This document shows, piece after piece, positions 10,937-15,182 of a stretch of 64,000 nucleotides of DNA. This DNA comes from Psychrobacter sanguinis (GTDB lineage Bacteria; Pseudomonadota; Gammaproteobacteria; Pseudomonadales; Moraxellaceae). The position numbers and the translations under genes are program-made. The stretch is from contig NZ_CP085990.1 in NCBI RefSeq assembly GCF_020736705.1, forward strand, positions 3,100,001 to 3,164,000. The letters are read 5' to 3'. The notes beneath the pieces are model-generated. The model searched no databases, had not been told where the DNA came from, and saw nothing but the letters and a program-made list of their open reading frames with translations. Positions within the stretch are counted from its first letter, which is position 1, and each line of letters starts with the position of its first letter.

Positions 10937-12032
10937 CTACAACCCTGCTTTTAAACTGGCTTCAATAAATTGATCCAAATCACCATCTAATACGGCACCG
11001 GTATTAAAAGTTTCAACGCCAGTACGTAAGTCTTTAATGCGAGAATCATCTAACACGTAAGAGCGAATTTGACTGCCCCAGCCCACATCAGACTTATTGT
11101 CTTCAACGGCTTGCTGTTTCTCCATACGCTTTTGCATTTCAAGCTCATACAGCTTAGCGCGTAGCATTTTCATTGCTGTCGCTTTGTTACCATGTTGACT
11201 ACGTTCGTTCTGACACTGCACCACGGTATTGGTCGGTTCATGGGTAATACGAACTGCTGAATCTGTGGTGTTCACGTGCTGACCACCGGCACCGCTTGAG
11301 CGGTAAGTATCGATGCGCAGATCCGCTGGATTGATATCAATGTCAATATCATCATCAATCTCAGGAGACACAAAAACTGCAGCAAATGACGTGTGGCGGC
11401 CATTATTACTATCAAAAGGTGATTTACGAACCAAACGATGCACGCCTGTCTCGGTACGCAGCCAACCAAAGGCATAATCACCGGTCACTTTAAAGGATGC
11501 TGATTTAACCCCTGCCACACTACCGGCAGAAACCTCAGTAACATCCACTTTAAAGCCGTGCGACTCGCACCAGCGGGTGTACATGCGCAGTAACATCTCT
11601 GCCCAGTCTTGAGCTTCTGTACCACCACTGCCTGACTGAATATCAACGAAACAGTTATTAGGGTCCATCTCCCCGTTAAACATACGCTTAAATTCTAAGT
11701 CTTCCACTTGCGCTTGGGCCGCATTTAGCTCTTGCTGTACATCTGAAAGCAAACTTTCATCATCAGCCTCTACCGCCAACTCAAGCATGGCTGCGGCATC
11801 TTCTAGCGTCGTTTCAAGTCCGGTAATGGTATTGATAATAGCGTCCAATTGGCTTTTTTCTTTGCTAATTTTGGTCGCTCGCTCAGGATCATTCCAAAGC
11901 TCAGGGCTTTCCATCTCAAGGTTAACTTCTTCTAGGCGCTCTGACTTACCCTCGAAGTCAAAGATACCTCCGTAGATCCTGTGAACGTGCTGTTAAATCT
12001 TTAATTTGTTCTTGGTACTGGTTGATTTCCAT
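10937..12032 (-). CDS. prfB: Peptide chain release factor 2 (programmed +1 frameshift)
   Basis: Recognises UGA and UAA stop codons and triggers peptide release. The gene is read in two frames: 24 codons from ATG at 12032 to CTT, then an in-frame TGA (11958-11960); skipping T at 11960 continues in the frame that ends at 10937. The product is 364 residues (E. coli 365). In the full protein the SPF stop-recognition tripeptide falls at about 204-206 and the GGQ hydrolysis motif, in [12 protein letters not shown], at about 249-251, matching the family. The residue before SGAGGQ is Ser where E. coli K-12 has Thr. An annotation starting at 11914 would miss 39 residues. The nearest upstream minus-strand gene is a HAD hydrolase 92 bases away. 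Confidence 0.96.
11957..11972 (-). promoter_or_regulatory. prfB programmed frameshift signal
   Basis: On the minus strand the sequence reads CGGAGGTATCTTTGAC: an internal Shine-Dalgarno-like GGAGG, a three-base spacer, the slippery CTT codon, the TGA stop and a following C. Spacing and the TGA-C context match the classic RF2 autoregulatory site, in which low RF2 favours +1 slippage. Confidence 0.96.
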
Positions 12033-12955: not shown

Positions 12956-13492
12956 TTACTCAGGTGCCTCTATCTGCTGTAAACCGGTTTTAAATTGCTC
13001 TGACTTATGAGCATAATGTAGCGCTGACATTTTGAGCATGGCTGCTTGCTCATCGGTCAAAGTTTTGACTACTTTAGCCGGTGCACCCATAACCAATGAA
13101 TTGTCTGGAATCTCTTTGCCTTCAGTGACCAACGCTTTGGCCCCAATAATACAGTTTTTACCAATTTTGGCATTATTTAGTACCACGGCACCAATGCCAA
13201 TCAAGCTATTCTCACCCACTGTGCAACCATGTAGCATCGCCAGATGACCAATGGTAACGTTGTCACCAATATTTACCTCAATCCCAGCATCGGTATGAAT
13301 AACCGCATTTTCCTGCACATTGGTACAGTTGCCTATATTAATACGCTCATTATCACCCCGTATCACTGCGCCAAACCAAACATTGGCTTTGTGACCTAAA
13401 TACACATCACCAATAACTCGAGCGCTATCAGCCACCCACCCTTCAAAAGGAACGGCAAATTGTGGGGCTTTGTCTAAATATTTATAAATCAT
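12956..13492 (-). CDS. Gamma-carbonic anhydrase-like hexapeptide protein, start codon at IS insertion
   Basis: Left-handed beta-helix protein of the YrdA/PaaY/CaiE type. Hexapeptide turns run from VIGDVYLGHKANVWFGAVIRGDN to NSLIGIGAVVLNNAKIGKNCIIGA, with metal-ligand histidines in IHTDAG and in TIGHLAMLHGC. Relatives bind Zn or Fe and some have carbonic anhydrase activity. 178 residues from the ATG at 13492. That ATG lies inside the 9-bp target duplication of the adjacent IS, so the coding sequence is intact, but its native ribosome-binding site (AAGGA) and promoter now lie beyond the element. An in-frame GTG at 13504, inside the IS inverted repeat, could add four residues (MCRV). Expression probably depends on the IS. 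Confidence 0.9.
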   Translation of the reverse strand: MIYKYLDKAPQFAVPFEGWVADSARVIGDVYLGHKANVWFGAVIRGDNERINIGNCTNVQENAVIHTDAGIEVNIGDNVTIGHLAMLHGCTVGENSLIGIGAVVLNNAKIGKNCIIGAKALVTEGKEIPDNSLVMGAPAKVVKTLTDEQAAMLKMSALHYAHKSEQFKTGLQQIEAPE

Positions 13493-13494
13493 TA
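13486..13494. repeat. Left 9-bp target-site duplication of the IS
   Basis: AAATCATTA directly abuts the left inverted repeat and is repeated exactly at 14682-14690. On the minus strand it contains the ATG of the carbonic-anhydrase-like gene. Confidence 0.95.
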
Positions 13495-14681
13495 CTCTGC
13501 ACACGACAAAAAAACAAAAAAGTCTGTTAAAGCAAAGGCATAATAGTAATTTTTAAGACGAATCAGACTATGCCAAACCTTAACAGACTTAGTGAAACTT
13601 TAACCCAAAACCTGAGTATGAACAAGGCAAGAATCAATTGTTTGAGCCTAATGGTAATAGCCCTGATTACTGCTCAAAGCAGTAATCTTAAAAAAAATAG
13701 CAAGACACCTTCCTGTGGTAAAACCGACAGCCACTATCGCAGACTACAGCGATTTTTTTCCGAAGCGAGGATAGACTACGATCAACTGGCTTTAATGATA
13801 TATCGACTATTTGGGCTAGGCAAAGTCACCTTAACCATTGACCGCACCAACTGGAAATGGGGTAAAAGTAACCTCAACATCTTTATGCTAGGAGTGGTAT
13901 ATAAAGGGATAGCCATCCCCTTATACTGGCAAATGCTAGATAAGCGAGGTAATACAAACCATCTTGAACGCTGTGAACTTATTGAGCGGTTTATCAAACA
14001 ATTTGGCAAAGATAACCTTGAGATGATAGTAGCGGACAGAGAGTTTGTTGGCGAAAAATGGTTTAACTGGCTCACCAATAATCACATACCCTTTGCCATA
14101 CGGATTAAGAAGAACAGTAAAGTTAAGAATCATCATGGCAAGTTGGTACAGATTAAAGAGTTATTTCGCCATGTTGGCCATCAAGAAACATATCGACATG
14201 GGCGAATACTGACTGTCGATGGTTGTTTGGTTCGAGTATTTGCCAAGCGTGATAAAGACTACGGTTTAGTGATTGTGGCAACCAATCAACTAGAAACAGT
14301 GGATGCGATGATAAGCTATGGCAAGCGTTGGGAAATTGAGACTTTATTTGCTTGTCTAAAGGGCCGTGGCTTTAATCTTGAAGATACCCACTTAACCCAT
14401 CTTGATCGGGTCAGTAAATTAGTCGCAGTGAACGCCTTAGCATTTTGTTGGGCTTATCATGTCGGTATTTATAAAGACAAAGATAAGCCGTTAAAACGCA
14501 AGTTGAATTCAAACGCTCGACCTCAAGCCAGTTTGTTTGCGCTTGGCCTGGATGTGTTGATTGAAGGCCTGCGCTTGGTGTTTTTTAACAATGATAAGAC
14601 TGTATTTCGACAGTTAGTTAGCTTTTTAACCCCTAAACCTATGAAAATCCGGTGGGGATGATTTTTTTGTCGTGTGCAGAG
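13495..14681 (+). mobile_element. IS4-family insertion sequence, ISAba1-like, complete
   Basis: A 1187-bp element bounded by perfect 20-bp inverted repeats, CTCTGCACACGACAAAAAAA at 13495-13514 and its reverse complement at 14662-14681, flanked by perfect 9-bp direct repeats. From memory, ISAba1 of Acinetobacter has nearly the same tip (CTCTGTACACGAC), about 1.18 kb length and 9-bp duplications, so this is a relative of it. It carries one intact transposase. Perfect ends, perfect duplication and an open transposase indicate a recent, possibly still active insertion. The transposase points away from the carbonic-anhydrase gene, the same geometry in which ISAba1 activates neighbours from its left end. 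Confidence 0.96.
13570..14661 (+). CDS. IS4-family DDE transposase
   Basis: 363 residues in one frame. The catalytic triad can be read as D91 (LTIDRTNW), D156 (IVADREF) and E257. The family signature Y-(2)-R-(3)-E-(6)-K is exact: Y250, R253, E257, K264 in YGKRWEIETLFACLKGRG. The N-terminal 80 residues are the DNA-binding helical part (LSETLTQNLSMNKAR, YRRLQRFFSEA). The stop codon directly touches the right inverted repeat, as is usual in compact IS elements. ISAba1 was first described with two overlapping frames; here the frame is continuous. Confidence 0.95.
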   Translation: MPNLNRLSETLTQNLSMNKARINCLSLMVIALITAQSSNLKKNSKTPSCGKTDSHYRRLQRFFSEARIDYDQLALMIYRLFGLGKVTLTIDRTNWKWGKSNLNIFMLGVVYKGIAIPLYWQMLDKRGNTNHLERCELIERFIKQFGKDNLEMIVADREFVGEKWFNWLTNNHIPFAIRIKKNSKVKNHHGKLVQIKELFRHVGHQETYRHGRILTVDGCLVRVFAKRDKDYGLVIVATNQLETVDAMISYGKRWEIETLFACLKGRGFNLEDTHLTHLDRVSKLVAVNALAFCWAYHVGIYKDKDKPLKRKLNSNARPQASLFALGLDVLIEGLRLVFFNNDKTVFRQLVSFLTPKPMKIRWG

Positions 14682-14690
14682 AAATCATTA
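14682..14690. repeat. Right 9-bp target-site duplication of the IS
   Basis: AAATCATTA, identical to 13486-13494. Immediately beyond it (minus-strand reading) lies AAAAGGATG, the displaced ribosome-binding site of the carbonic-anhydrase-like gene, and a TATAAT at 14716-14721, its likely native -10. Confidence 0.95.
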
Positions 14691-15182
14691 TTAACATCCT
14701 TTTATATAGTGATTGATTATATAGCGATGGGCTATGGATTAGTGATCTTGGCTATTACCTAGGATTTATTGCGTATAAGTTTTTGCCTATAAATTCTTAC
14801 CTATGGTCATTAACAATAGAAATATAGGGTACAGAGTTAGCCTCTTTATGGATAGATACTTTTATTATTAGATACTTTATAAGTACGAACAAGGTTGTCT
14901 TAAAGTGTTGTTTTTTCAAAAGTATCATTTTTGTTAAAGTGGCTTTTAAAGTCATTAGATTAGCATTAATTTACTTTAAATTTAATAAAATGACTGTATT
15001 CTTCTCTTAATTATATCTGGTAACCAATAATTTTCGAGTCAATTCATTTGATGTTAATTTAACCCATGCTATTATCGCATTTTAAATGAGTATGGCTCGG
15101 ATACTAACCTATATATGACTCAGATAGTCATGAATTAAGTCATAAACAATCATTAACAAATAGCCTTTCTTCTGGACAATTT
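14691..15182. other. Spacer holding displaced promoter of the carbonic-anhydrase-like gene
   Basis: About 490 bases, AT-rich. The left part contains the stranded minus-strand RBS and TATAAT described above. The right part must hold the promoter of the DUF475 gene, but no clear -35/-10 pair stands out. No RNA gene or coding frame recognised. Confidence 0.6.

What the first reader, a model, noticed from the sequence alone, without database searches (positions are those of the whole stretch)
13486..14721. IS inserted exactly at a start codon, splitting a gene from its promoter and ribosome-binding site
The 9-bp target duplication AAATCATTA contains, on the minus strand, the ATG of the carbonic-anhydrase-like gene. 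Removing the IS and one duplication restores AAAAGGATGTTAATA-ATG, a good ribosome-binding site, with TATAAT about 30 bases upstream. So the insertion is recent, the coding sequence is untouched, and the native signals are stranded 1.2 kb away. Either the gene is silent or it now runs from the IS.
Basis: partly seen in the sequence, partly recalled or inferred. Interest (0 to 1): 0.75.

Follow-up and report, generated by a model that had tools for sequence, protein, structure and literature searches.

The report
Jumping gene splits start from signals
A common kind of bacterial jumping gene landed on the first codon of a carbonic-anhydrase-like gene, keeping the protein sequence whole but moving its ribosome-binding site 1.2 kb away, so the gene is probably poorly made or silent.

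Summary
A 1,187-bp IS4-family element (13495-14681) sits between two exact copies of AAATCATTA, which holds the gene's ATG on the minus strand. Joining the flanks gives AAAAGGATGTTAATA-ATG; the block TATAAAAGGATGTT is identical in the four closest same-genus genomes at the same place, so the stranded ribosome-binding site is native. The TATAAT promoter is not supported (no -35, not conserved). The insertion is recent: this copy is identical to one on a relaxase-bearing contig of the same genome. The site fits the element's target taste (TAT-9 bp-ATA), so hitting a start codon looks like chance. The IS end facing the gene offers almost no Shine-Dalgarno and carries a conserved hairpin plus U-run that should stop outward transcripts. 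Most likely the gene is strongly down. Against this, ISAba1, a relative, has an outward promoter at the same end in the same orientation, so IS-driven expression stays open. Ordinary biology overall. A side finding is more unusual: 30 of 36 copies read have the transposase frame interrupted at a conserved A8/A9 run, with both halves under purifying selection, which points to programmed slippage.

The parts
13495..14681 (+). IS4-family insertion sequence, 1,187 bp, ISAba1-like ends
   Evidence: 20 full-length copies in own genome, ends and duplications, NCBIfam NF033591 IS4 family transposase 230.7 bits, cut-off 152
13486..13494 (.). left copy of the 9-bp target duplication AAATCATTA; holds the ATG that heads the gene now
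14682..14690 (.). right copy of the target duplication; holds the stranded ATG
13570..14661 (+). transposase, 363 aa, continuous frame in this copy; Y(2)R(3)E(6)K seen in the sequence
12956..13492 (-). gamma-carbonic-anhydrase-like hexapeptide protein, 178 aa, intact
14696..14703 (-). stranded native ribosome-binding site AAAAGGAT
   Evidence: TATAAAAGGATGTT identical in the 4 closest genomes
14716..14721 (-).
14626..14688 (-). 20-codon ORF now headed by the native RBS and the stranded ATG
13520..13590 (-). hairpin at the IS left end (terminator-like on this, the outward strand; its arms enclose the transposase start on the other strand)
   Evidence: -27.2 kcal/mol, z -6.5; 6 of 21 pairs with changes on both sides
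13508..13521 (-). U-run TTTTTTGTTTTTTT at the end of the hairpin
13690..13697 (+). A8 run in the transposase gene; the frame is interrupted here in 15 of 20 copies of this genome, not in this copy

Best explanation
A recent transposition of an ISAba1-like IS4-family element into a preferred AT-rich target placed the IS between the native ribosome-binding site and the ATG of the carbonic-anhydrase-like gene. Shown by sequence: the exact duplication, the restored and conserved RBS in the joined flanks, the identical copy elsewhere in the genome, the target preference, the conserved hairpin and U-run. Inferred: the gene is now strongly reduced or silent. Its ATG follows GUGCAGAGUA with almost no Shine-Dalgarno; transcripts from the old promoter would meet a 20-codon dead-end ORF, run 1.2 kb antisense to the transposase and should stop at the terminator-like hairpin just before the gene. 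Any remaining expression would come from a promoter in the last bases of the IS left end, downstream of the hairpin's 5' arm, and would be badly translated. A beta-class carbonic anhydrase elsewhere in the genome may cover the loss.
For: Duplication and ends. Copy on C2 100% identical, the other 18 about 97%; C2 carries a MobA/MobL relaxase. Target consensus TAT-9 bp-ATA over 23 sites. RBS block identical in the four closest genomes; blastn of the joined flanks runs across the junction, 15 to 32 bases past it, in 6 of 6 relative loci (4 genomes, two of them fetched twice), whereas with the IS in place the alignment starts at the ATG. Shine-Dalgarno duplex -5.7 for the joined flanks, -2.4 now; 29 relatives -8.3 to -3.8, so the present junction is weaker than all 29. 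Hairpin z -6.5, 0 of 200 shuffles as good; 6 pairs changed on both sides against shuffled mean 2.6, 0 of 500. Beta-CA Pfam match in own genome.
Against: ISAba1 (about 44% identical transposase) has an outward promoter near its left inverted repeat (passages of PMC3498117; hexamers from passages of PMC9330008 found at that end in L179). Consensus scans cannot decide: the window end and ISAba1's own end are no better than shuffles (49% and 66% as good), while the same end of a Moraxella osloensis copy scores better than most (3% of shuffles as good), which favours a promoter there. 8% of 2,288 ATG in the window have an upstream duplex as good as the native one and 45% as good as the present one, so the RBS argument rests on conservation more than on energy. 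The hairpin may serve mainly the other strand. Its two-sided changes come from few lineages (three near-identical siblings and L168), and the count of further pair types does not exceed shuffles (168 of 500). No expression data exist here.
Confidence: 0.62

Rival explanations
1. The gene is now run from an outward promoter in the IS left end, as ISAba1 does for genes beside it, with useful or even raised expression.
For: Same end and same orientation as the documented ISAba1 promoter; such a promoter would start downstream of the hairpin's 5' arm, so the hairpin would not stop it; a -35-like TTAAAA lies near the place of ISAba1's TTAGAA; TTGGCA-16-AAAAAT also lies on the outward strand; a Moraxella osloensis copy scores well there (3% of shuffles as good).
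Against: ISAba1's -10 TTATTT aligns with TTGCTT in the window; the window's own scan is no better than shuffles (49%); the gene's own RBS was not kept, so translation should be poor.
Confidence: 0.27
2. Transcripts from the native promoter read through the whole IS and still express the gene.
For: No unusual structure at the right end against entry (z 0.63).
Against: They would have to pass the hairpin and U-run before the gene and would still lack a good Shine-Dalgarno at the ATG.
Confidence: 0.05
3. Assembly error placed an IS copy here.
For: 20 near-identical copies in the genome.
Against: Own exact 9-bp duplication, a variant that differs from 18 of the 20 copies, a target that fits the element's consensus; a 4-contig assembly with completeness given as 100.
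Confidence: 0.02

Closest known systems
ISAba1 (IS4 family, Acinetobacter)
   Same: Nearly the same terminal bases (CTCTGYACACGAC), similar length, hairpin at the left end, left end can face a gene in opposite orientation to the transposase
   Different: Transposase about 44% identical; its frame interruption lies near nt 541-567 of the gene, here (in sister copies) near nt 120; its outward -10 is not conserved in the window element
IS10 subgroup of the IS4 family
   Same: CT ends, 9-bp duplications, YREK (table in PMC2266710, passages read)
   Different: 1,187 bp is just under the listed 1,200-1,350; 15 of 20 copies in this genome lack the 'no frameshift' hallmark
IS insertions that separate a gene from its start signals
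   Same: An ordinary outcome of IS transposition next to a start codon (general knowledge, no call)
   Different: Here the duplication holds the whole ATG, so the coding sequence is kept to the letter

Membership tests
IS4 family | DDE transposase with Y(2)R(3)E(6)K | tested here: met
   YGKRWEIETLFACLK in the 363-aa product; DDE_Tnp_1; NF033591 above cut-off
IS4 family | target duplication of about 10 bp | tested here: met
   9 bp in 17 of 20 copies of the genome
[quoted passage not shown]
   met in this copy and 4 others of 20; 15 of 20 are interrupted
IS10 subgroup | CT ends, 9-bp duplication, 1,200-1,350 bp | tested here: inconclusive
   ends and duplication met, length 1,187 slightly short; no tree was built
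ISAba1-like elements | shared ends and left-end outward promoter | tested here: inconclusive
   ends shared, -10 hexamer not conserved
gamma carbonic anhydrase | hexapeptide-repeat protein related to solved gamma-CAs | tested here: met
   Hexapep 56.1 bits, cut-off 27; 9rmq gamma carbonic anhydrase E 5.9e-58
gamma carbonic anhydrase | NCBIfam equivalog NF050158 above its cut-off | tested here: not met
   167.2 bits against 250; hence '-like'
gamma carbonic anhydrase | enzyme activity, metal binding | not testable with these tools
   His residues at places that look like the metal motif; the motif is recalled, from no call

The most novel reading that the evidence does not exclude
This ISAba1-like group makes its transposase by programmed slippage at a conserved A8/A9 run near codon 42, a recoding site that is not part of the IS4-family definition, and the copy at the carbonic-anhydrase gene belongs to a natural sub-lineage whose frame is continuous.
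Probability: 0.45. Interest if true: 0.45.

Novelty: new member of a known kind. Interest (0 to 1): 0.3.

Why it matters
It is a clean natural case of an insertion that removes translation signals while leaving every codon in place, in a gene found in 105 of 105 same-genus genomes searched. It lets one ask how far an IS end with almost no Shine-Dalgarno can carry a gene, and whether the conserved left-end hairpin of these elements insulates neighbours. The side observation bears on how an active Moraxellaceae element group controls its transposase.

Tried and rejected
Promoter and terminator consensus scans: one search found 11 promoter-like sites against 7.9 +/- 3.2 expected and 4 terminator-like against 1.9 +/- 1.2, so not informative; its terminator pattern does not allow the long branched loop of the left-end hairpin. 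TATAAT as native promoter: unsupported. Right-end structure as a block to native transcripts: no signal (z 0.63). Neighbour gene starts around the 20 copies: no clear pattern seen, no statistic made. The first outward fold, 13491-13580 minus, gave only z -1.4; the strong hairpin appeared once its whole 5' arm was included. My first guess at the target rule, TA directly beside the duplication, was wrong (1 and 0 of 23); the same call shows TAT / ATA, read from frequencies without a formal test. Alpha carbonic anhydrase in the genome: no match. Literature searches. In the listings and passages I saw, nothing describes this element's frame interruption; most listed papers were not opened, and subscription papers are mostly not held. 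PMC5009743 and PMC3711429 were searched for IS4 and ISAba (no occurrence in the held text). Same-species strains were not available, so the empty site was tested only in other species.

Full report
What is there. The window lies on the 3.3-Mb contig C1 of a four-contig genome, by its relatives a Psychrobacter (closest named locus P. pasteurii, 91% at the protein). A 1,187-bp element at 13495-14681 has inverted ends and is flanked by exact 9-bp duplications AAATCATTA. It encodes a 363-aa IS4-family transposase (NF033591, 230.7 bits against cut-off 152) with the YREK pattern. The minus-strand gene 12956-13492 encodes a 178-aa gamma-carbonic-anhydrase-like hexapeptide protein; the NCBIfam gamma-CA model stays below its cut-off (167 against 250). 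Its ATG lies inside the duplication, so the coding sequence is whole.

Is the start real and is the stranded signal native? 105 of 105 same-genus genomes (own included) have a match to the protein at E <= 0.001; G081 is weak (2.6e-4), G074 is cut at a contig end, G086 has one stop. Loci were given for the 30 best matches, one of them the window itself; all 29 others have an ATG at the aligned start. The four closest genomes (G038, G039, G040, G073) keep TATAAAAGGATGTT directly upstream, identical to the joined flanks of the window. blastn of the joined flanks aligns 15 to 32 bases past the junction in 6 of 6 relative loci (L061 and L062 give the same alignments as L032 and L035, so four genomes), while with the IS in place the alignment starts at the ATG. 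Gene order around the site is the same in P. pasteurii: DUF475/TerC, CA, HAD, prfB (named), with carA-like and PAP2-like ORFs further out (named from recall).

What is not supported. The TATAAT, 27 bases from the ATG, pairs with -35 hexamers of 2 or 3 matches of 6, and the best hit of that region is equalled by 92% of shuffles. TATAAT in such a stretch has a chance of about 4.5% from composition, and relatives do not keep it. I accept the ribosome-binding site and leave the promoter open.

How recent, and why here. 20 full-length copies were found in the genome; the window copy is 100% identical to one on contig C2 and about 97% to the other 18. C2 carries a MobA/MobL relaxase (10 of the 26 ORFs were scanned), and DNA beside that copy matches records of the plasmid collection, so C2 is most likely a plasmid. 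32 copies were tested for duplications; 23 have an exact 9-bp one (17 of 20 in this genome, 6 of 12 elsewhere) and share the symmetric consensus TAT-AAANNNTTT-ATA, read from base frequencies. The CA start, TAT-AAATCATTA-TTA, fits. With about 20 copies and AT-rich gene starts, one start codon inside a duplication is not surprising (a rough estimate of my own, about one chance in ten, from no call).

What the left end does. On the strand that reads out toward the gene, 13505-13596 folds at -27.2 kcal/mol, z -6.5, 0 of 200 shuffles as good, and ends in TTTTTTGTTTTTTT. Across 18 distinct left ends from this and related elements, 98.9% of cells pair and 6 of 21 pairs change on both sides (shuffled mean 2.6, 0 of 500 reach it; slid versions 0 or 1); the count of further pair types does not exceed shuffles (168 of 500). 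The two-sided changes come from few lineages: the 68% siblings (three near-identical rows) and L168. The same arms on the inward strand enclose the transposase start (z -3.8 and -4.2), as in the protection against outside transcripts known for IS10 and IS50 (recalled). The data do not say which strand matters; the outward reading as terminator is inference, helped by the conserved T-run.

Translation. The Shine-Dalgarno duplex of the 22 bases before the ATG is -5.7 kcal/mol for the joined flanks and -2.4 now; 29 relatives range from -8.3 to -3.8. As a caution, 8% of 2,288 ATG in the window have an upstream duplex as good as -5.7, and 45% as good as -2.4. The stranded RBS and ATG on the far side now head a 20-codon ORF.

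Silent or driven by the IS? ISAba1 is the nearest well-studied relative I know (about 44% protein identity in the rows, which listed 40 of 978 records). PMC3498117 (abstract and passages) reports an outward promoter near its left inverted repeat, overlapping the transposase promoter. PMC9330008 (passages) gives its hexamers as TTAGAA-17N-TTATTT; in L179 they lie at that end with 16 bases between. In the window a TTAAAA lies near and the -10 position aligns with TTGCTT, so the promoter is not plainly conserved. A simple scan does not see even the ISAba1 promoter (66% of shuffles as good), nor one in the window (49%), but the M. osloensis copy L171 scores well (3%). I put 0.62 on strong reduction and 0.27 on useful IS-driven expression. 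A beta carbonic anhydrase (PF00484) is present at C1:390254-390730; no alpha type was found.

Side finding. In 15 of 20 copies of this genome the frame that begins at the transposase ATG stops at codon 48, just after an A8 run; in 5 it runs on, and these 5 are of two types that differ from the rest at or just after the run. L154, broken right after the run, and L155 and L168, which do not cover it comparably, were dropped; several of the 16 are partial copies, the Acinetobacter plasmid copies were not opened, and loci are capped, so this is not a full census. No copy of the 36 is in the third frame at this place. L020 and L173 have further damage downstream. Between Psychrobacter and M. osloensis-type copies dN/dS is 0.05, 0.06 and 0.09 over 38 codons before the run (about 23 synonymous sites, so rough) and 0.07, 0.08 and 0.09 after it in the shifted frame, the last over 191 bases only; other frames exceed 1. 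Both halves are thus constrained. PMC3711429 (passages) names A runs longer than 7 as sites of transcriptional realignment. PMC2266710 (passages) lists absence of frameshift as a hallmark of the IS4 family. ISAba1 has an interruption of its own elsewhere, so recoding in this corner of the family would not be unheard of. Rival: interrupted copies are passengers moved by continuous ones, and the constraint is inherited; the data do not exclude it.

Noticed in passing
13690-13697; L001-L020, L141-L146, L151, L153, L170-L177: Conserved A8/A9 run that interrupts the transposase frame in 30 of 36 copies read; both halves look constrained. Suggests programmed slippage in an IS4-family element.
   Followed up: partly
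L001, L180:5379-6275: The identical sister copy of the IS sits 89 bp from a class A beta-lactamase gene (RTG/CARB type by plasmid records) on a MobA/MobL-bearing contig.
   Followed up: partly
L003 and L004: One IS copy on C2 and one on C1 have the same 25 bases at their left flank, and the C2 copy lacks an exact duplication: perhaps recombination between the two contigs through the IS.
   Followed up: no
11950-11970 minus strand: prfB downstream keeps a CTTTGAC site after GGAGG, the usual frameshift site of release factor 2 (motif recalled).
   Followed up: no
L022-L030: A second element about 68% identical, nine long copies in the same genome, with the same left-end hairpin kept by compensatory changes and no A-run.
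   Followed up: partly
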